Shown here in pieces: positions 14,067 through 56,125 of a stretch of DNA of 64,000 nucleotides; the first letter of the stretch is position 1; every line of letters begins with the position of its first letter. The stretch is from a virus. The position numbers were made by a program, and so were the translations under genes. Location: the IMG/VR virus record IMGVR_UViG_3300032431_000001, positions 124,400 through 188,399 of that record; one strand, written 5' to 3'. The notes beneath the pieces were generated by a model. That model was not told the DNA's origin. It ran no database searches and saw only the letters and a list, made by a program, of their open reading frames with translations.

Positions 14067-14095
14067 TTGTGTCTAGTAGTAGATAGTGGTATAAT
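14067..14095 (+). promoter_or_regulatory. Sigma70-type promoter
   Basis: TTGTGT (14067-14072) and a perfect TATAAT (14090-14095) are separated by 17 bp. Transcription should begin near 14102. No credible ORF follows before the terminator at 14385-14425, so it appears to drive a non-coding RNA. Confidence 0.7.
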
Positions 14096-14101
14096 AGGAT
14101 A

Positions 14102-14428
14102 CAAGAAAGAAAAGTAACGCTACACAGATTCAACAACGCGAATTAATCGAGGATACTCGACGCAGCCATTGAAGTACGCGATCACACTCTTAATTTAACG
14201 AAAACGTTTAATTATATTTAATTATCACAAAAAACAAATCACTATTTTGCGGATCAGCGATCCGTAACCAGTCGAGGAAGTTGCCACAATTAATATCGCG
14301 CGAGACGCTGTATTGATTCAGACTGACAGATGAGAATTCTTGCAGTCGAAATTTGCTCCCATCAGAGATGGAACTAGAGCGAACAAAAAGCCCGCCAAAC
14401 CCAAATAGGGTTTGGCGGGCTTTTTGTT
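14102..14428 (+). ncRNA. Candidate structured non-coding RNA (about 330 nt)
   Basis: Bounded by the TATAAT promoter and a strong intrinsic terminator, with no translated ORF. Inside are a perfect small hairpin CGGATC-AGC-GATCCG (14250-14264) and an AT-rich tract. The part from 14197 onward recurs after the tnpB element at 15744, with the hairpin and terminator conserved and a 25-30-base deletion elsewhere. Conservation of hairpin and terminator suggests an RNA. Function unknown; a leader RNA for tnpB is the main alternative. Confidence 0.5.
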
Positions 14429-14445
14429 GGACTTTTTTTTAATTT
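14197..14445. repeat. Left copy of a long direct repeat flanking tnpB
   Basis: 249 bp from AACGAAAACG to the TTAATTT after the terminator. The same TTAATTT heptamer also precedes the copy (14190-14196). It matches 15744-15970 over nearly its whole length. Confidence 0.9.
14385..14425 (+). terminator. Intrinsic terminator of the ncRNA unit (left copy)
   Basis: AAAAAGCCCGCCAAACCC pairs perfectly with GGGTTTGGCGGGCTTTTT around AAATA. Confidence 0.9.
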
Positions 14446-15743
14446 ATCCGCACAATGTAAAGATTTATCATATTTATACACACAAAACTGTATAAACATG
14501 ATAAGCTGGTCACATGGTAACACTAGAGTACAAGTTGAAAGGCAAAGCGCAGCAATATCAGATCATCGACGACATGATCCGAACTGCTCAGTTTGTCCGA
14601 AACAAAGCTCTTAGATACTGGATCGACAATCAAGGAGTTAAGCTCGTTGACTTATACAAACAATGCGCCATCATGGCAAAAGAGTTTGAATGGGCCGGAA
14701 AACTTAACTCAATGGCGCGTCAAGCTTCGGCTGAACGTGCCATTTTTGCTGTTCAACGTTTCTTCGCTAATTGTAAAGCGAAAAAACCTGGAAAGAAAGG
14801 ATACCCGCAATTCAAAAAGCACACTCGCTCAGTAGAATATAAAACATCAGGATGGAAGCTTTCTGCTGATAAAAGATGTTTGACATTTACGGACGGGTTT
14901 GCAGCGGGTACTTTCAAACTGGTCGGCAGTCGGGATTTACACTTCTACGCTCCTAGCGAAATTAAACGAGTTAGGGTTGTGCGTCGGGCTGATGGCTACT
15001 ATGTTCAGTTTTGCATCAACGTAGAACGAACGGAGGAAGTCAGCCCAACAGGTAAAGCTATTGGAATAGATGTCGGATTAAACCATTTCTATACCGATAG
15101 TAACGGTGAAACAATACCTAACCCTCGCTATTTACGAAAAAGCGAAAAAGCCCTAAAGCGAGCGCAGAAACGAGTTTCCCGAAAAAAGAAAGGCTCCAGT
15201 AATCGCAAAAAAGCGATTAACAGATTAGGAAGAAAACACCTCAAAGTCAGTAGGCAGCGCAAAGACTTCGCCATAAAGACGGCGTTGTGCGTAGTAAAAT
15301 CTAACGATTTTGTAGCCTACGAAGATTTGCAGGTGAAGAACATGGTGAAGAATCATAAGCTTGCCAAATCGATTAGCGATGCCGCTTGGCGTCAGTTTGC
15401 TCAGTGGTTGCAATATTTTGGCAAAGTGTACGGTAAAACAGTAATTGCTGTTGCTCCTCAGTACACATCTCAAGATTGCTCAGTCTGTGGAAACAGAGTC
15501 AAGAAGTCGCTGTCGGTTAGGACACACATTTGTGGATGCGGTGCGGTATTAGACCGCGACCACAATGCTGCGCTGAATATTTTGGCGAAGGGACTGAAAC
15601 AGGCAGGGGTTATTTTAAATACGGTGGGGCACACCGAAATTAACGCTTGGGGACAGAACGATCTCTACTCATTGGTGGTGACATCAAAGAGCAAATCGAC
15701 TGATTGATCCAAGAATCCCTACGCTTTTAGGCTGGGGAGTGTC
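14446..15743 (+). mobile_element. IS200/IS605-type tnpB-only element
   Basis: The limits follow from the flanking repeat: the left copy ends in TTAATTT at 14445 and the right copy restarts at 15744. The right end (AGAATCCC, stem, GCTGGGGAGTGTC) matches the conserved right ends of the other TnpB elements here. There is no tnpA, so it depends on a transposase in trans. Confidence 0.75.
14514..15707 (+). CDS. tnpB: TnpB RNA-guided nuclease (397 aa)
   Basis: Complete RuvC set: AIGIDVGLNHFYTDS (Asp), FVAYEDLQVKNM (Glu), zinc finger CSVCG...CGCG, then DRDHNAALNIL (Asp). Normal length for IS1341-type TnpB, so it is likely active. The omega RNA should come from the 3' end of this gene plus the element's right end. 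The bases just past that end would be its guide, and they are the first bases of the flanking repeat. Confidence 0.9.
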   Translation: MVTLEYKLKGKAQQYQIIDDMIRTAQFVRNKALRYWIDNQGVKLVDLYKQCAIMAKEFEWAGKLNSMARQASAERAIFAVQRFFANCKAKKPGKKGYPQFKKHTRSVEYKTSGWKLSADKRCLTFTDGFAAGTFKLVGSRDLHFYAPSEIKRVRVVRRADGYYVQFCINVERTEEVSPTGKAIGIDVGLNHFYTDSNGETIPNPRYLRKSEKALKRAQKRVSRKKKGSSNRKKAINRLGRKHLKVSRQRKDFAIKTALCVVKSNDFVAYEDLQVKNMVKNHKLAKSISDAAWRQFAQWLQYFGKVYGKTVIAVAPQYTSQDCSVCGNRVKKSLSVRTHICGCGAVLDRDHNAALNILAKGLKQAGVILNTVGHTEINAWGQNDLYSLVVTSKSKSTD

Positions 15744-15970
15744 AACGAAAACGTTTAATTATATTTAATTATCACAAAAAAAACAAATCACTATTTTGCG
15801 GATCAGCGATCCGTAAGCAGTCGAAGACGTTACCACAATTAATATCGCGCGAGACGCTGTATTGATTCAGTTGAAATTTGCTCCCATCAGAGATGGAACT
15901 AGAGCGAACAAAAAGCCCGCCAAACCCAAATAGGGTTTGGCGGGCTTTTTGTTGGACTTGTTTTTAATTT
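15744..15970. repeat. Right copy of the long direct repeat
   Basis: 227 bp. It differs from the left copy by two extra A in an A-run, a few substitutions, and loss of roughly 25-30 bases between two CAG triplets. It keeps the CGGATC-AGC-GATCCG hairpin and the terminator (15910-15950). It has no promoter of its own, so it would be read from the tnpB transcript. Confidence 0.9.
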
Positions 15971-16497: not shown

Positions 16498-17124
16498 ATG
16501 TCGAAAACAAATCCTATTACGCAAGCAAGAATTCTCAAAGTATTAGATAAATTGGTAGCGCGTTGCGAAGGTAGCCCGATCGCCCACCAGATTCTGTTAG
16601 TAGCCAGTGCGAATTGCTTACCGTTGACTCGAAGTGAAGAATTAGAACGCTATGAACGGATGATACACCTGAATTCAAAATACCAAAGATTGTGCGAAGT
16701 ATTCATAAGTAGAGCGAAAAAGGTGGCTAATATCCAATCGCGACAAAATATCAGCGGAGTAATCTGGGATTATGCAGATCCAAGCGGGCGATCTCAAACG
16801 CTGAGCTTTCCTGTTTTCCACCATTTGTTAAACCCAACGGAGGGTGACAAACTTCTGCTCGCTAGCTTTAAACAGATCGTGATTGAGTATGCGATCAAGT
16901 GGGCGATCGAAAACGGTTTGACATTTTCACGGACAAATTTGGAAGGTGATACGCTGAGAATAGACGCTTTAGATATATGGGCGATCGCCCCTTTTTACGG
17001 CTGGGCGACTATTTGTATTGAGAATATTCCCAGTAATCCAGTTGAGATATTCCTTTGTTTAGGTACGCGAGGGGCGATCGAAGATGTATCAACGATGTGG
17101 ATTTACGCTAGGCGAGATTTTTGA
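16498..17124 (+). CDS. Hypothetical protein (208 aa)
   Basis: Soluble alpha/beta protein with no motif I recognise. The N-terminal third is helical (QARILKVLDKLVARCEGSP), and the C-terminal part is hydrophobic and beta-like (AIAPFYGWATICIENIP). It stands alone between two terminators, so it is transcribed separately from the tail genes that face it. Confidence 0.5.
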   Translation: MSKTNPITQARILKVLDKLVARCEGSPIAHQILLVASANCLPLTRSEELERYERMIHLNSKYQRLCEVFISRAKKVANIQSRQNISGVIWDYADPSGRSQTLSFPVFHHLLNPTEGDKLLLASFKQIVIEYAIKWAIENGLTFSRTNLEGDTLRIDALDIWAIAPFYGWATICIENIPSNPVEIFLCLGTRGAIEDVSTMWIYARRDF

Positions 17125-17173
17125 CAAAAAAAAGGGGGGCGATCGGATAATTCCGATCGCCCCCCTTTTTTTT
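17125..17173. terminator. Bidirectional terminator
   Basis: Long perfect palindrome (A-run, GGGGGGCGATCGGA, then the complement and T-run) between convergent genes; works on either strand. Confidence 0.9.
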
Positions 17174-17194
17174 ATCAAAAGTCAACGCCAAAGA

Positions 17195-30810: not shown

Positions 30811-30855
30811 AAAAAAGAAGGGGCGATCGAATTAATCGATCGCCCCTTCTTTTTT
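30811..30855. terminator. Bidirectional terminator
   Basis: Long palindrome: A-run, GAAGGGGCGATCGA, AT loop, the complement and T-run. It separates the fibre operon from the leftward 30868 gene. Confidence 0.9.
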
Positions 30856-30867
30856 ATCAACTTACGA

Positions 30868-31284: not shown

Positions 31285-31878
31285 ATGATTTACTTTGCGG
31301 GATTCCGTAATTGGGAGCAGCAATTTGGCGCGCTGTTTAGTATTGCCAATACAGAACCAGATATATTCAAAGGTCGCATCGATCGCCTGTCTTTCTTTGT
31401 ACCAACATGGAAGGACGTGAATTTGTGGAAAACAAGTTTCAAGACAGATGCAGACTGGAATCAGTTTGTTTCTATGTACAGAATTGTCTGTCGGACGCGG
31501 TGGGACGAAATACATCGCTGGCTCAATGAGCTAACACCAGACAAAGATATGACGCTACTGTGCTGGGAACCTACCTCTAAAAGGTGTCACCGATCGCTAG
31601 CTGCAAAATTTGTTGAGGTGTATCGCCCCGATTGTTATGGCGGCTTAGATGTCCAAAACCCGTATCGCAAACGCTGTCGGCACAAGAATGTCACCTATGA
31701 TATTCTTGTGATGGAGTCTCCTTGGTGTGAGGGTTTTTGCTTCTCGCTATCAGTCGGATCTGGCGTCGGCAAGATTGGTAACCATCCAGATTATCCGTAT
31801 CTAAGGGGCGTTTGGGCTTTGCCAGAATACGCAATAGCCGCTGCGGTTGAATTTATTAAAAACGACCAGCAAGAATAA
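31285..31878 (+). CDS. DUF488-like protein (197 aa)
   Basis: The motif LLCWEPTSKRCHRSLAAKF at about residues 90-108 matches the DUF488 hallmark (CxE...CHR). The N-terminal part (MIYFAGFRNWEQQFGALF) and the WDEIHRWLNEL helix fit a small alpha/beta fold. DUF488 proteins are of uncertain biochemical role and are frequent in phages and bacteria. The ATG at 31285 is preferred over a GTG at 31276. Confidence 0.65.
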   Translation: MIYFAGFRNWEQQFGALFSIANTEPDIFKGRIDRLSFFVPTWKDVNLWKTSFKTDADWNQFVSMYRIVCRTRWDEIHRWLNELTPDKDMTLLCWEPTSKRCHRSLAAKFVEVYRPDCYGGLDVQNPYRKRCRHKNVTYDILVMESPWCEGFCFSLSVGSGVGKIGNHPDYPYLRGVWALPEYAIAAAVEFIKNDQQE

Positions 31879-31880
31879 AA

Positions 31881-31915
31881 AAAGGGGGCGATCGAAAATA
31901 CTATCGATCGCCTTC
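31881..31915 (+). terminator. Imperfect hairpin after the DUF488-like gene
   Basis: AAGGGGGCGATCGA pairs imperfectly with ATCGATCGCCTTCC. There is no T-run, so termination is uncertain. Confidence 0.35.
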
Positions 31916-34269: not shown

Positions 34270-34902
34270 ATGGATGATCGGGATGGAAAGCTAAAAAAAA
34301 ATAACAACAAGTTGATTACAACGCAGCTCAGTTTGCAACAGCAGCGGTTTTGCGAAGAATATATCTTGGATCTCAACGCAGGTGAGGCTTATATCAGATC
34401 AGGCTACAAAGTTAAAAGCCAGAAAAGTGCGAATTCTGCGGCGTCTCGGCTTCTAGGAAACGTCAATATCCAAAAAGAAGTCGATCGCCTGCGGAAAGAG
34501 CGCGGCCGGGAAACGATGATTGATTCCTCACGAGTGCTGGCAGAACTCGGAATTATCGGGCTTTCTAATATTCTCGATTACATTAAGTACGAAAATGGCG
34601 CTTATACAGTGAAGCCGTCGAGCGAGTGGGAACATCCACAAGCGGTTGCTGAATTTAGTACGTCCACCTTCAAAGGTGAAACCAAAGTTTCTTTCAGGCT
34701 CCACAACAAGATCGAGGCGATCAAGATGCTGGCGACTCACGCGGGATTGCTTAGTGACCTGAATACTGCACTCAACGTACTGAGGCGCTACGGGTACGAA
34801 GTAGAGGAAACCGAAGACGGTTTGTTCTGTCGCGACACATATATTAGCGATCGTATCCAAATCGAACAGACACCATTAGCCGCTATTGCGGACAACAACT
34901 AA
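34270..34902 (+). CDS. Terminase small subunit (210 aa)
   Basis: QQQRFCEEYILDLNAGEAYI, then SGYKVKSQKSANSAASRLLG and a long helix (VNIQKEVDRLRKERG), is the classic Terminase_2 N-terminal helix-turn-helix. It recognises phage DNA and loads the packaging motor. The C-terminal part (IEAIKMLATHAGLL) is also typical. No large subunit follows: the downstream DNA is a truncated terminator and a TnpB element. Confidence 0.85.
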   Translation: MDDRDGKLKKNNNKLITTQLSLQQQRFCEEYILDLNAGEAYIRSGYKVKSQKSANSAASRLLGNVNIQKEVDRLRKERGRETMIDSSRVLAELGIIGLSNILDYIKYENGAYTVKPSSEWEHPQAVAEFSTSTFKGETKVSFRLHNKIEAIKMLATHAGLLSDLNTALNVLRRYGYEVEETEDGLFCRDTYISDRIQIEQTPLAAIADNN

Positions 34903-34931
34903 TCTTTTAATCGTTTTAAACCCAATTTTCT

Positions 34932-34958
34932 GATAAAAAAAGAAGGGGCGATCGGATT
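34932..34958 (+). other. Half of a terminator palindrome
   Basis: A-run, GAAGGGGCGATCGGA is the left arm of a hairpin of the type seen complete at 30811. The right arm is missing because the TnpB element's right end begins a few bases later. This marks a rearranged junction just after terS. Confidence 0.6.
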
Positions 34959-34963
34959 AAATT

Positions 34964-36294
34964 ATTGACACTCCCCAGCCTGAAGGCATGAGGATTCTTT
35001 GATCTACGAGCCGACTTGCTGAGGCAGGATTTCTCCAACCACAGTAGAGGTCAATTCTCCCAAAGCGTTACTTGCATCTAGTGCAAAGGTTCCGGTATGC
35101 CCTACCGTACCCAATCCCCGACTTAGGATATTTATAGCAGCATTGAAATCTCTATCCATTAGACACCCACATTTACAGGCGTGAGTTCTAGTGGATAGCG
35201 TTTTTTTGACAATTTCACCGCAGCTAGAGCATTCTTGGCTAGTATATTGCGGATTTACCGCAACCGTTACGCGCTTAAATACTTTTCCAAAATATTCCAG
35301 CCATATACGAAACTGATACCAAGATGCGTCGTTAATAGACTTAGCAAGACAATGATTCTGCACCATATTCTTGATTCTCAAATCTTCGTAGGCTATCAAG
35401 TCGTTTGACTGAATTACGCACCTTGCCAATTTCACGGCATGGTCTTTACGTTGCCTGCTTATTTTGAGATGGCGCTTGCCTAAAATCTGTCTAGCTTTGC
35501 CTCTATTCTTTGAGCTTTTAACTTTTCTCGATACTCGACGCTGACTACGTTTAAGAATACGTTCACCTTTTCTGAGGAATCTAGGGTTTTCAACCGTGAC
35601 TCCATTTGAATCTGTGTAGTATTCTCTTAATCCGACATCTAATCCGATAGTAGTACCTGTCGGCGCTGTATCTTCTGTCCTATTGACATCTATACAGAAT
35701 TGAACGTAAATACCGTCAGCGCGTTTTACCAATCGAACCCGTTTAATTTGGCTGATTTGGTAAAAATGTAAGTCGCGAGTGCCCTTTATTTTCAACTTGC
35801 CGATCCCTTTTTTATCGGTAAAAGTTATCGACTTTCTATCAGGAGAAAGTTTCCACCCAGTCGATTTGTACTCAACAGAGCGGCAGTCTTTCTGAAACTG
35901 AGGATATCCTTTTTTACCGGGAATCTTTTTCTTGCAGTTTTCGTAGAACCGAGAGATAGCAGACCAAGCGCGTTCGGCACTTGCCTGTCTTGCCTGAGAA
36001 TTGAGTTCATCAGCGAACGGAAAAGTTGCTGCTAGTACAGCACAGTATTTGTTCAGATCGTACTTGTTCTTTTTGGGATTGTCTATCCAGTAGCGCAAGC
36101 AACTATTACGAACAAACTGGGCAGTCCGAATTGCTTCGCCTACTGCCTGGAATTGACTCGATTTTCCGTAAGCCTTAAACTCAAAAACTAACATTGCTCT
36201 CACCTCCATCCTTATGCTACCGCTTTCCGTACAAGAGTGATGAATATGTAATGAAAGTTTACAATTAAAGCCGTCCTAGAAGGACGGGGTTTTC
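34964..36294 (-). mobile_element. IS200/IS605-type tnpB-only element
   Basis: The right end TTGACACTCCCCAGCC with its stem is at 34964, and the left end with the stem AAGCCGTCCTAGAAGGACGG is near 36268. The 19-bp sequence AACCCAATTTTCTGATAAA lies outside both ends (34919-34937 and 36295-36313). No tnpA. Confidence 0.7.
35004..36194 (-). CDS. tnpB: TnpB RNA-guided nuclease (396 aa)
   Basis: The ATG at 36194 has GGAGGTGAG upstream. RuvC-I TIGLDVGLREYYTDS, RuvC-II LIAYEDLRIKNM, zinc finger CSSCG...CKCG and RuvC-III DRDFNAAINIL are all present, so it is likely active. Close relative of the products at 14514, 39331 and 40695, apparently one family that spread within this region. Confidence 0.9.
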   Translation of the reverse strand: MLVFEFKAYGKSSQFQAVGEAIRTAQFVRNSCLRYWIDNPKKNKYDLNKYCAVLAATFPFADELNSQARQASAERAWSAISRFYENCKKKIPGKKGYPQFQKDCRSVEYKSTGWKLSPDRKSITFTDKKGIGKLKIKGTRDLHFYQISQIKRVRLVKRADGIYVQFCIDVNRTEDTAPTGTTIGLDVGLREYYTDSNGVTVENPRFLRKGERILKRSQRRVSRKVKSSKNRGKARQILGKRHLKISRQRKDHAVKLARCVIQSNDLIAYEDLRIKNMVQNHCLAKSINDASWYQFRIWLEYFGKVFKRVTVAVNPQYTSQECSSCGEIVKKTLSTRTHACKCGCLMDRDFNAAINILSRGLGTVGHTGTFALDASNALGELTSTVVGEILPQQVGS

Positions 36295-36389
36295 AACCCA
36301 ATTTTCTGATAAACTACCTGTTGACAACTTACATCCCCAATCGAGAAGAAGTCGAACAATGGGATATGGGGCTAGCTTATGACTAAGCC

Positions 36390-39287: not shown

Positions 39288-40694
39288 TGGCTTGACACTC
39301 TCAGGGCTAAAGCCGCTGAGATTCTTGTTTCTACGAATCGACTTGCCGATATAGAATTACTTCAACATCAGTAGCGGTCAATTCTCCACAAGCGTTCAGA
39401 GTGTTACCACCCCAAGTTCCGGTATGCCCTACCGTACTCAACCCCCGACTTAGGATATTTCTAGCTGCGTTATGATCACGGTCTAAAACACATCCACATC
39501 TACAAACGTGCGTTCGTGTTGATAGACTCTTCTTAACAATCGCTCCGCAACTAGAGCATTCTTGACTGGTTCCGTTGGCTGTCACGGCAATCGTAATTCT
39601 TCCGAATACTTTGCCGAAATATTCCATCCAAACTCGGAACGTATACCAAGATGCGTCGTTAATAGACTTAGCTAGACAGTGATTCTTCACCATATTTTTA
39701 ATCCTCAAATCTTCGTAGGCTACACAGTCGTTAGACTGGATTACGCACCGCGCTAACTTTATAGCGTGGTCTTTACGCTGTCTACTTATTTTGAGGTGGC
39801 GTTTTCCTAGAATCACTCTAGCTTTCTTTCTGTTTCCTGAACCCTTGACGCGCTTTGATACCCGTCTCTGGGACTTCTTTAATCTACGCTCTCCCTTGCG
39901 GAGGAATCGTGGATTTTCAACCGCAACACCATTGGAATCAGTGTAAAATTCTTTCAATCCCACGTCTAATCCAATGGCGTTACCAGTTATTTCTACGACT
40001 TCGGAACGGTCAACTTGAATGCAAAACTGAACGTAGTAGCCGTCTGCACGTTTTACCAACCTGACTCGTTTAATTTGAGTGTTTTGGTAGAAATGCAAGT
40101 CGCGTGTCCCTTTTAATTTTAGCTTCCCAATCCCTTGCTTGTCGGTAAAGGTGATGGATTTCCTATCTGTTGCCAATTTCCAACCGCTAGTCTTATATTC
40201 GACTGAGCGGTTGTCTTTTTGGAACTGTGGAAATCCCTTTTTACCGGGAACCTTCTTCTTACAGTTATCGTAGAACCGGGAAATTGCCGACCACGACCTC
40301 TCCGCACTTGCCTGTCGAGCCATGCTGTTTAAGTTGTCGCAAAACGGAAATTCTTTAGCTAATACTGCACAGTATTTACTCAGATCGTTTTTGTCAATCT
40401 TTTTACCGTCCAACCACAAGCGAATTGCTTTGTTGCGGATGAATTGTACCGTTCGTATTGCTTCATCTACAGCATCAAACTGCTGTCGCTTTCCATATGC
40501 TTTAAACTCGAAAACCAGCATGACTTCGACCTCATCACGATATGTTTTTACGATAACATAAGCATTGTAAGAGAAACCAAATCTTCACAATACTTTACAA
40601 GAAAGATTGAACGGGGCTGAAGTCCCCGCCCGCTTTCATCTCAGGACTAAAGTCGCTGAGCTTTTCGCATTACGCTAGTTTCTTTGTAAAATCT
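39288..40694 (-). mobile_element. tnpB element nested inside another tnpB
   Basis: Lies between the two halves of a broken tnpB. The right end (TTGACACTCTCAGGGCTAAA) is at the left side and the left-end stem (CGGGGCTGAAGTCCCCG) at the right. The borders are estimated from where the broken protein reads on. Confidence 0.75.
39331..40521 (-). CDS. tnpB: TnpB RNA-guided nuclease (396 aa)
   Basis: Intact motifs: AIGLDVGLKEFYTDS, CVAYEDLRIKNM, CSSCG...CRCG and DRDHNAARNIL. It is inserted antisense in the 116-bp-in position of a sister tnpB gene, so its predicted guide would match the coding sequence for the RLWIDG region of that sister. Confidence 0.9.
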   Translation of the reverse strand: MLVFEFKAYGKRQQFDAVDEAIRTVQFIRNKAIRLWLDGKKIDKNDLSKYCAVLAKEFPFCDNLNSMARQASAERSWSAISRFYDNCKKKVPGKKGFPQFQKDNRSVEYKTSGWKLATDRKSITFTDKQGIGKLKLKGTRDLHFYQNTQIKRVRLVKRADGYYVQFCIQVDRSEVVEITGNAIGLDVGLKEFYTDSNGVAVENPRFLRKGERRLKKSQRRVSKRVKGSGNRKKARVILGKRHLKISRQRKDHAIKLARCVIQSNDCVAYEDLRIKNMVKNHCLAKSINDASWYTFRVWMEYFGKVFGRITIAVTANGTSQECSSCGAIVKKSLSTRTHVCRCGCVLDRDHNAARNILSRGLSTVGHTGTWGGNTLNACGELTATDVEVILYRQVDS

Positions 40695-41702
40695 TGGTTT
40701 GAGCTTTCTAAGTATTGTGCAATTTGGGCCAAAGAATTTGACTTTGCGAATAAGTTAGGTGCAATGGCTCGACAGGCAAGTGCTGAGAGAGCATGGGCTG
40801 CTATTTCCCGTTTTTACGAAAACGTCAAAAAGGGCATTAAAGGTAAAAACGTTGGTTTTCCTAGATTCCAAAAAGACTGTCGATCTGTTGAATACAAAAC
40901 TAATTCTTGGAAGCTAGCATCAGATCGGAAATCAATTACATTTACAGATAAGTGCGGCATTGGCAAGCTGAAGCTAAAAGGCACTCGCGATCTTAACTTC
41001 TATCAGCCAGACCAAATAAAACGAATTCGACTAATTAAACGAGCCGATGGATATTACGTCCAGTTTTGTATCCAAGTAGACCGAGTAGAACTCGCGAGCA
41101 TGACAGGCAAAACGATTGGATTAGATGTGGGACTTAAAGAGTTTTACACTGATTCAAATGGCGAAATGGTTCCCAACCCTAGATTTCTGCGTAGAGGTGA
41201 AGCACGGTTAAAACGTGCCGGGCGTCTTGTAAGCCGGAAAGTAAAAGGTGGTTTGAATCGCCGTAAAGCTAGAGTGATTTTAGGTAAGCGACATCTCAAA
41301 ATAAGTAGACAGCGCAAAGACCATGCTATTAAGTTAGCGAGGTGCGTAATCACATCAAACGATGTAGTAGTTTACGAAGATTTGAGAGTGTCTAATATGG
41401 TCAAAAATCACTGCTTAGCCAAATCGATTAGCGACGCTTCTTGGTATCAGTTCAGAATGTTCTTAGAATATTTTGGAAAAGTGTTCGGTCGGATTACCAT
41501 TGCGGTGAATCCGGCTTACACAAGCCAAGAATGCAGCAGTTGTGGTGTTGTGGTTAAGAAATCTCTATCCACTCGAACCCATATTTGTCAGTGTGGGTGT
41601 GAGATGGACAGAGATCATAATGCCGCAATTAATATCCTCAATCGCGGGATAAGTACGACGGGGCACGTCGGAACTTCGATCTTTGAGATCGTAAACGCTT
41701 AG
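40695..41702 (+). pseudogene. tnpB: C-terminal piece of split tnpB
   Basis: Reads on in frame from VKSWFELSKYCAIWAKEFDF, exactly where the N-terminal piece stops. The RuvC residues (TIGLDVGLKEFYTDS, VVYEDLRVSNM, DRDHNAAINIL) and zinc finger are kept. An internal ATG at 40764 could give a product lacking about 55 N-terminal residues, which contribute to RNA binding, so activity is unlikely. Confidence 0.85.
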
Positions 41703-54586: not shown

Positions 54587-55159
54587 TTAATTAATCGGTG
54601 GCGGGACTGCATTTGAAGTGGAAACCCGTCGCAAGGATTTTGGTTTGTCGCTCGGCTTGGTGATTAAGCGCAGGTTTATTGTCACTTGGCGATCGTAGTC
54701 ACGATCAATCGCGTCCGCACTAACAAACGGTTGCTCCGGTTTCCCGCTCAATAACACCGGAATAGCGTGAGGCTTGACGTGGCGTTTTGGAATAAAAGTA
54801 ACCTTAACCAAATTCAAGTCATTACGGTCGATCAAGTCGAGTCCAGCTTTCAGACTTTCGCTGGAACCAATTTCATAGAAAGTAAACTTTCCCGTTTCGT
54901 CAGCGGGGCGCTCTATTGTTGCTGTTACAAAACCCTCCAGTCGCCAACCACCAACTTCTTTGCCGTTAATCTCGATAATTACGTCAGTAACGTCCTGGGC
55001 ATGGTTCCGCAACCAAATACAGTATGTATCGCCGTGTTCCATGTGGACGTATCCTTGACAATCATGGTGCGGACACCTCTGCCGAACCAACTCGTCAGTC
55101 CATGTGTCGTGATAACCGACTGGTCGCATAATGAGTGCTGCTCTGTCTTCTAATCGCAT
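54587..55159 (-). CDS. Hypothetical protein, tandem paralogue A (190 aa)
   Basis: The ATG at 55159 (MRLEDRAAL) follows AAGGA; an in-frame start 19 codons upstream lacks one. The core has YCIWLRNHAQDVTDVIIEIN with GKEVGGWRLEGFVTATIERP and FTFYEIGSSES, a beta-sandwich-like pattern. Unrecognised. About three quarters identical by eye to paralogue B at 55404 but shorter by a roughly 27-residue Gly-rich segment. Confidence 0.55.
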   Translation of the reverse strand: MRLEDRAALIMRPVGYHDTWTDELVRQRCPHHDCQGYVHMEHGDTYCIWLRNHAQDVTDVIIEINGKEVGGWRLEGFVTATIERPADETGKFTFYEIGSSESLKAGLDLIDRNDLNLVKVTFIPKRHVKPHAIPVLLSGKPEQPFVSADAIDRDYDRQVTINLRLITKPSDKPKSLRRVSTSNAVPPPIN

Positions 55160-55224
55160 GACAATCCTTAAAATGTTTCTACAAGCATAGCACACTAACC
55201 GTATAATGTTTTCCAACTAAAGTT

Positions 55225-55403: not shown

Positions 55404-56060
55404 TCAGTTCACCGGCGGCGGAACCAAGTTAGAAGTAGCACTCGCTCGCAGCGGTCGAGGCTCGTCACTTGGCTTAGTGACTAAGCGCAGGTTTATTACC
55501 ACTTGGCGATCGTAGTCACGATCGATCGCGCGCGCACTACCAAACTCTTGATCCGATCGCCCGCTCAATCCAGTACCTCCCGCACCACGAGCTTTCATTC
55601 CAAGTTCGACACTTTGCCCAGTACCTTTAACTCTGGAATAGGACTTAAGCTCCAACATCGGAATAGCGTGGGACTTGACGCGGTGCTCTGGAATAAAAGT
55701 AACCTTAACCAAACCTAAATCATCACGGGCGATCGAGTCGAGTCCAGCCTTCTGACTTTCGCTGGAACCAATTTCATAGAAAGTAAACTTTCCCGTGTCG
55801 TCAGGGGGGCGCTCTATTGTTGCTGTTACAAAAGAGCCCAGTCGCCACCCACCGATTTCTTTGCCGTCAATAGAAATAATTACGTCATTACGCTCGTCGG
55901 TATGGTTCCGCAACCAAATACCGTAAGTACCGCCGTGTTCCATGTGGACGTATCCTTGATCGTCTTCGTGCGGATACCTCTGCCGAACCAACTCGTCATC
56001 CCATGTGTTGCAAGGACCCACGAGTCGCATAATGCGTGCTTCTCTGTTTTTTAATCGCAT
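55404..56060 (-). CDS. Hypothetical protein, tandem paralogue B (218 aa)
   Basis: Starts at ATG 56060 (MRLKNREAR) with GAGGA upstream, at the same position as paralogue A. It keeps HGGTYGIWLRNH, GKEIGGWRLGSFVTATIERP and FTFYEIGSSES. It carries an extra segment near residues 140-170 (KGTGQSVELGMKARGAGGTG). Role unknown; duplication together with the promoter suggests selection for dose or divergence. Confidence 0.55.
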   Translation of the reverse strand: MRLKNREARIMRLVGPCNTWDDELVRQRYPHEDDQGYVHMEHGGTYGIWLRNHTDERNDVIISIDGKEIGGWRLGSFVTATIERPPDDTGKFTFYEIGSSESQKAGLDSIARDDLGLVKVTFIPEHRVKSHAIPMLELKSYSRVKGTGQSVELGMKARGAGGTGLSGRSDQEFGSARAIDRDYDRQVVINLRLVTKPSDEPRPLRASATSNLVPPPVN

Positions 56061-56125
56061 GACAATCCTCAAAGAGTTTCTACAAACATAACACACTAAC
56101 CGTATAATGTTTTCCAACGAAAGTT

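What the first reader, a model, noticed from the sequence alone, without database searches (positions are those of the whole stretch)
14067..15970. Duplicated promoterless/promoter-bearing ncRNA unit flanking a tnpB element
A perfect TATAAT promoter leads into about 330 bases with no ORF, a conserved hairpin and a strong terminator. The 14197-14445 part recurs after the tnpB element at 15744-15970, with hairpin and terminator kept but an internal deletion. Repeats of about 240 bp precisely at both ends of an IS605-type element are not made by its normal mechanism, so a tandem RNA gene pair existed first, or recombination created it.
Basis: seen in the sequence. Interest (0 to 1): 0.7.

Follow-up and report, generated by a model that had tools for sequence, protein, structure and literature searches.

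The report
Phage RNA gene split, then re-completed
A large virus or virus-like plasmid of cyanobacteria carries a previously undescribed structured RNA gene; a small transposon landed inside it, and a later DNA rearrangement restored a whole copy of the gene in front while leaving a broken half-copy behind and clipping off one end of the transposon.

Summary
Copy 1 (14197-14445) and copy 2 (15744-15970) are about 95% identical outside one 24-nt deletion in copy 2 and flank a tnpB element. A related cyanobacterial phage record (L106/G001, 200 kb) holds ONE contiguous copy at the same place without tnpB: 76.5% identical over 345 nt, from a conserved extended -10 box to the terminator, with compensatory base-pair changes. 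So this is a stand-alone structured ncRNA gene, most likely single-copy ancestrally; no Rfam family matches. Relatives of the transposon do not carry the repeat. Their right end (..GTGTCAA) coincides exactly with the start of copy 2, and copy 1 has TTAA|C at that point, like an IS608-type insertion site. The left boundary is NOT the transposon's end: the IS608-like left end (TTAY, guide AAAR, GC hairpin) of its relatives is missing, and the ncRNA terminator runs into element-internal sequence across an 8-nt overlap (TTTAATTT). Most likely the IS inserted into the ncRNA gene, then recombination with an IS-free allele restored an intact ncRNA, duplicated its 3' half and crippled the IS. The RNA's function remains inferred. 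Moderate interest.

The parts
14067..14095 (+). Promoter of the ncRNA: weak -35 TTGTGT (14067-14072), 17-nt spacer, extended -10 TGgTATAAT
   Evidence: Sequence; TGGTATAATA conserved in L106; not listed by the consensus scan because of the weak -35
14103..14430 (+). Intact structured ncRNA (about 328 nt; 5' end estimated from the -10 box)
   Evidence: Fold z -7.45; 76.5% identical single-copy syntenic homologue in L106; covariation
14147..14160 (+). Hairpin 1 of the 5' domain, UCGAG-loop-CUCGA; stem conserved in L106, loop changed
14195..14198 (+). TTAA followed by C: inferred former insertion site (target/TAM position) of the IS in the ncRNA gene, intact in copy 1
   Evidence: The copy-1 sequence after it equals the sequence after the IS right end (D3); IS608 rule TTAC with preference for C at +1 (PMC5934647)
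14197..14445 (+). Repeat copy 1 (3' part of the intact ncRNA and its tail)
14247..14267 (+). Hairpin 2 (GCGGATC-AGC-GATCCG)
14288..14318 (+). Hairpin 3, with two pairs changed on both sides in L106
14321..14347 (+). Hairpin 4, loop UGAGAAUUCUUGC; removed by the 24-nt deletion in copy 2
14353..14382 (+). Hairpins 5 and 6 (GCTCCCATC-AGA-GATGG..GAGC), one pair changed on both sides in L106
14383..14427 (+). Intrinsic terminator of copy 1
14438..14445 (+). TTTAATTT: inferred recombination junction, shared by the ncRNA 3' tail (as at 15963-15970) and the sub-terminal left end of the IS (as in L051)
14446..15745 (+). IS200/IS605-type (IS1341-like, tnpB-only) element lacking its left end; right end ...GGGGAGTGTCAA at 15734-15745
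14514..15707 (+). tnpB, 397 aa, RuvC motifs present (GIDVG, YEDL, DRDHNAA)
   Evidence: Pfam PF01385 and PF07282; NCBIfam guided_TnpB; motif positions
15746..15765 (+). Expected guide of the element's omega/reRNA (first ~16-20 nt after the right end); perfect match to 14199-14218 in copy 1
   Evidence: reRNA rule from PMC8612924
15744..15970 (+). Repeat copy 2: promoterless 3' half of the ncRNA gene with a 24-nt deletion and a terminator (15908-15952)

Best explanation
The region holds one phage-borne structured ncRNA gene (14067-14430) plus a stranded 3' half of the same gene (15746-15970), separated by a left-end-truncated IS200/IS605-type tnpB element. Steps: (1) ancestrally a single ncRNA gene lay between the 238-aa gene and the next gene, as in G001 [shown for G001, inferred for the ancestor]; (2) an IS608-like element inserted after TTAA/TTAY in the AU-rich linker of the ncRNA, giving the exact right junction GTGTCAA|CGAAAACG [strongly inferred]; (3) the 3' tail of an IS-free allele (...TTTTTTTTAATTT) recombined with the sub-terminal left end of the inserted IS (..GGCTTTAATTTA..) over 8 nt, which restored a complete ncRNA in front, duplicated its 3' half behind the IS, and removed the IS left end so that it should no longer move [inferred from junction anatomy]. 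A TnpB cut at the IS-free site is a plausible trigger for step 3 [not shown]. The ncRNA most likely works as an independently transcribed trans-acting regulatory RNA of the phage [inferred; it could equally serve packaging or replication]. Copy 2 probably just ends the tnpB/omega-RNA read-through transcript.
For: Single syntenic copy without tnpB in L106/G001, contiguous across the insertion point, 76.5% over 345 nt. Flanking genes are homologous in the same order on both sides. 5 of 65 pairs changed on both sides and still paired; 97.3% of cells paired against 36-44% when slid. Right end ..GGGGAGTGTCAA shared with relatives that have unrelated downstream DNA. The left end TTAY-N15-16-AAAR-hairpin is found in 9 relatives by a strict pattern and 3 more by eye, with TTAC always with AAAG and TTAT always with AAAA; none in element A; shuffled hit rate 0.0005. 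This is the IS608 layout (CL TTAC, GL AAAG, CR TCAA, GR GAAT; PMC5934647). The distance from the junction to the tnpB start (76 nt) resembles that between hairpin and start in L051 (about 80 nt), and both begin TTTAATTTA. All 4 substitutions derived in copy 1 fall within 16 nt (14268-14283) while copy 2 keeps the L106 state, which fits a different allele as the source of copy 1.
Against: Only one relative of the phage was found, so polarity rests on a single outgroup. The alignment of element A's 76 nt with the L051 left end is not significant by itself (136 of 1000 shuffles score as high). The inferred site is TTAA, whereas relatives use TTAC or TTAT. No transcript data. A chimaeric amplification product in the metagenome at a microhomology cannot be excluded; an ordinary assembly k-mer collision is unlikely with only 8 shared bases.
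Confidence: 0.72

Rival explanations
1. Tandem duplication first: the ncRNA 3' part duplicated between its TTAATTT direct repeats (14190-14196 and the tail), the IS then inserted at TTAA|C of the second copy, and its left end was later lost by slippage between two TTTAATTT repeats.
For: TTAATTT occurs both just before the repeat (14190-14196) and at its end (14439-14445, 15964-15970), so a tandem duplication would have exactly these endpoints; it needs no second genome.
Against: Needs three events rather than two; the only relative has a single copy; no further repeat copy in either record; the clustered copy-1 differences are not predicted.
Confidence: 0.2
2. The repeat belongs to the transposon (long terminal repeats or a composite unit).
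For: The repeat abuts both observed ends of the tnpB segment.
Against: Relatives of the element (L051 at 86% TnpB identity, window element B, 16 plasmid loci) lack it next to their ends; a BLAST of the repeat against the 30 viral TnpB loci gives only chance-level hits; the related phage has the RNA without the element.
Confidence: 0.02
3. Sequencing or assembly chimaera of an IS-free and an IS-bearing strain.
For: The record is an uncultivated-virus contig; the two copies differ as two strains would; the junction is a short microhomology.
Against: The join shares only about 8 nt, too little for a k-mer collision; the outer flanks are consistent with one genome, in the order seen in L106.
Confidence: 0.06
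4. The 5' part is protein coding: in L106 an 86-codon ORF behind AGGAGG runs through it.
For: L106 ORF 17007-17267 on the minus strand with a perfect Shine-Dalgarno sequence; 8 of 17 differences fall in third codon positions.
Against: In the window the same frame has a TAA stop and no start; the hairpin stem UCGAG/CUCGA is conserved while its loop codons change; the 3' domain is not covered by that ORF; 5/4/8 over the codon positions is weak.
Confidence: 0.07

Closest known systems
IS608 / IS200-IS605 family (IS1341-type tnpB-only elements of cyanobacteria)
   Same: TnpB with RuvC motifs and TNB zinc domain; right end with GAAT guide and TCAA cleavage site; relatives have TTAY target, AAAR guide and a left hairpin in IS608 layout
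   Different: This copy has lost its left end and is followed by an exact copy of its own target gene half, so that its expected guide matches a site 1.5 kb away on the same molecule
ISAam1 TnpB (Acaryochloris, TAM TTTAA) and ISDra2 TnpB (TAM TTGAT)
   Same: Same enzyme class; ISAam1's TTTAA (PMC11224200) equals the five bases before the site in copy 1 (14194-14198); ISDra2 TnpB is a solved homologue
   Different: TAM of this protein not tested; its closest relative, L051, sits at TTAC; ISAam1 itself was not compared by sequence
TnpB gene drive on plasmids (PMC11870625)
   Same: An IS on a multicopy replicon whose TnpB would cut IS-free copies and force recombination with IS-bearing ones
   Different: Here the product is an aberrant junction that restores the interrupted gene and probably freezes the IS; activity not shown
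Known RNA families (Rfam 15), including 6S and large phage RNAs
   Same: Stand-alone structured RNA with its own promoter and terminator
   Different: No match at gathering thresholds; 6S model gives nothing

Membership tests
IS200/IS605 family, tnpB-bearing element | TnpB with OrfB_IS605 and Cas12f1-like TNB domains and RuvC motifs | tested here: met
IS200/IS605 family, tnpB-bearing element | Right end: guide GAAT 5' of a hairpin, cleavage site TCAA, insertion without target duplication | tested here: met
   AAGAATCCC...GGGGAGTGTCAA at the boundary with copy 2; same in relatives
IS200/IS605 family, tnpB-bearing element | Left end: TTAY flank, guide AAAR at about +16, subterminal hairpin | tested here: not met
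   Absent within 400 nt upstream of this tnpB; present in 12 relatives (9 by pattern, 3 by eye). Hence called a truncated member
IS200/IS605 family, tnpB-bearing element | RNA-guided, TAM-dependent DNA cleavage | not testable with these tools
   Needs biochemistry
Structured ncRNA gene (new family candidate) | Independent homologues with conserved structure and compensatory changes | tested here: met
   One homologue only (L106); 5 pairs with change on both sides, 6 of 500 shuffles reach it
Structured ncRNA gene (new family candidate) | Own promoter and terminator | tested here: met
   Conserved extended -10 and terminator in both genomes by sequence; transcription not tested
Structured ncRNA gene (new family candidate) | Expressed RNA of the predicted length | not testable with these tools
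   No RNA-seq available
Known Rfam family | Score above a gathering threshold | tested here: not met
   0 matches in 64 kb
TnpB-derived repressor (dead TnpB, TldR-like) | Loss of RuvC catalytic residues | tested here: not met
   GIDVG, YEDL and DRDHNAA motifs intact

The most novel reading that the evidence does not exclude
The frozen tnpB element has become a resident weapon: its omega-RNA guide, fixed by the right junction, targets the ncRNA gene of IS-free relatives entering the same cell, while the resident's own restored ncRNA escapes because its flank reads TTAA rather than the TTAC/TTAT used by the element's relatives. That would be marker exclusion between related phage-plasmids aimed at an essential RNA gene.
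Probability: 0.07. Interest if true: 0.75.

Novelty: new member of a known kind. Interest (0 to 1): 0.4.

Why it matters
It gives a new structured RNA candidate in large cyanobacterial phages related to a Nostoc phage-plasmid. The RNA is better conserved than the protein genes next to it, and the restoration of an intact copy suggests that it is needed. The locus also looks like a fossil of an aberrant repair event at a TnpB target: interrupted gene restored, half-copy left, transposon end lost, and an apparent self-target kept in cis, which makes TnpB target rules (TTAA against TTAC/TTAT) directly testable.

Tried and rejected
Exact-pattern scans with ncRNA pieces: a 16-mer palindromic piece gave 45 chance hits in viral contigs; a 24-mer and a degenerate hairpin pattern gave none; the one hit in genome contigs lies inside a UbiA-like coding gene of a Chloroflexi MAG and is chance. 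Searches with the 238-aa neighbour and the ATPase found no viral relatives. blastn of the window RNA and of the L106 RNA against phages and plasmids gave nothing or only chance hits. The Oscillatoria plasmid with the related ATPase has no ncRNA; the Nostoc C052 phage-plasmid has no significant CM hit. tRNA/tmRNA and 6S rejected. sRNA target idea: the hairpin-4 loop UGAGAAUUCUUGC is 13/13 complementary to codons near the start of gene 16498-17124, but 1-mismatch versions are as common in pC052_F, which lacks the RNA, and the site is not seen in G001, so this is only a lead. Reading 14446 as the true left end of the IS was rejected because all well-aligned relatives carry another left end. Relatives in whole genomes could not be drawn because the window is a virus record.

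Full report
What is there. The window is bases 124400-188399 of a 188,399-base virus record. Its genes point to a large contractile-tailed phage of cyanobacteria: the 995-aa tail protein has its only plasmid relative on Nostoc sp. C052 plasmid pC052_F (41% over 99%), which encodes portal, terminase, tape measure and ParAB. Portal, terminase and ribonucleotide reductase of that plasmid have homologues in this record, but its ParA and ParB do not. One close viral relative was found, G001 (199,763 bases; locus L106), with 86% and 97% identity in the tail sheath-like and tail tube-like proteins.

The repeat. Copy 1 and copy 2 are real and much alike. In the whole 188-kb record they are the only copies. 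The segment before copy 1 carries TTGTGT-17-TATAAT with TG before the -10; the stretch from 14103 to 14430 folds far better than shuffles (z -7.5) and ends in a 20-pair terminator.

The homologous locus. In L106 the same place holds one RNA-like stretch, 76.5% identical from the -10 box to the terminator, contiguous across the point where the window has the transposon, with no tnpB, and it is single in that 200-kb record. Genes on both sides are homologous and in order. The adjacent 238-aa gene is only 36% identical in protein, so the RNA is more constrained than its neighbour. Five pairs change on both sides and stay paired, in four helices; 97.3% of cells are paired against 36-44% when partners are slid. 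With three sequences, two of them sister copies, this is supportive rather than conclusive. No Rfam family matches.

The transposon. tnpB is intact in its motifs. The element's right end, AAGAATCCC..GGGGAGTGTCAA, is shared with L051 (86% TnpB identity) and other relatives, which are followed by unrelated DNA. Copy 2 starts exactly there. In copy 1 the same sequence, CGAAAACGTTTAATTATATT.., follows TTAA. IS608 inserts after TTAC, prefers C next, and has guides AAAG and GAAT and right cleavage site TCAA (PMC5934647). Relatives of this element follow that layout: nine by a strict pattern (shuffled hit rate 0.0005) and three more by eye have TTAC with AAAG or TTAT with AAAA, then a GC hairpin. Element A has no such left end; ncRNA tail sequence joins, over TTTAATTT, to the 76 nt before tnpB, about the length found between the hairpin and tnpB in L051, which also begins TTTAATTTA. 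The direct alignment of these 76 nt with L051 is not significant, so the loss of the left end rests on its absence here and presence in relatives.

Mechanism. The simplest history is insertion of the IS into the ncRNA gene at TTAA|C, then one recombination between an IS-free allele and the IS-bearing allele over eight shared bases. It explains all boundaries: an intact ncRNA, a left-truncated IS, an exact right junction and a 3' half-copy. TnpB normally cuts the IS-free site and so provokes recombination with the IS-bearing copy (PMC8612924; PMC11870625), so a TnpB cut is a natural but unproven trigger. All four changes special to copy 1 lie in 16 nt, where copy 2 keeps the L106 state, which fits copy 1 coming from another allele. 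The rival order, tandem duplication first, is kept at 0.2 because TTAATTT also occurs just before copy 1.

Consequences. The expected guide matches copy 1 perfectly, so either the flank TTAA is not accepted, or TnpB is silent, or the locus is under self-attack; this was not testable here. Copy 2 has no promoter of its own; its terminator would end the tnpB/omega-RNA transcript. Its deletion removes most of hairpin 4.

Function of the RNA. A trans-acting regulatory RNA is my working choice (about 0.5), with packaging or replication control as alternatives. The hairpin-4 loop is complementary to the start of gene 16498-17124, but this is not conserved in G001 and similar sites occur in pC052_F, which lacks the RNA. 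In G001 an ORF behind a perfect Shine-Dalgarno sequence overlaps the 5' domain, so a dual role there is possible; in the window that frame is closed.

Verdict. An ordinary kind of event (IS insertion plus microhomology recombination) in an RNA gene that appears to be new.

Noticed in passing
14331-14343 and 16525-16537: Loop of ncRNA hairpin 4 is 13/13 complementary to codons 10-14 of the 208-aa gene 16498-17124; the match is not seen in G001 and similar near-matches occur in pC052_F.
   Followed up: partly
L106 17007-17267 (minus strand): An 86-codon ORF behind AGGAGG runs into the ncRNA 5' domain in the related phage; the frame is closed in the window.
   Followed up: partly
34880-34970 and 36290-36330: tnpB element B (35004-36209, minus) has a second fragment of left-end-like sequence (TTTATCAGAAAATTGGGTTTAAAAC) just beyond its right end, so it is flanked by partial left ends on both sides.
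   Followed up: no
39331-41702: Two related tnpB genes (62% to the finding's TnpB) lie head to head; the + strand one (40764-41702) starts inside what looks like an inverted copy of the other's 5' region and is N-terminally truncated.
   Followed up: no
17128-17185, 30813-30860, 31874-31915: Dispersed hairpin terminators built around GGGCGATCG/CGATCGCCC (HIP1-like) recur between genes, also in L106.
   Followed up: partly
54587-55216 and 55404-56117: Tandem paralogous genes (both begin MENIIRLVCYxCRNxLRIVMRL), unknown function.
   Followed up: no
whole record G000: At least eight TnpB-type genes in 188 kb; the related pC052_F also carries several TnpB and IscB genes, an unusually high load for phage-like elements.
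   Followed up: partly
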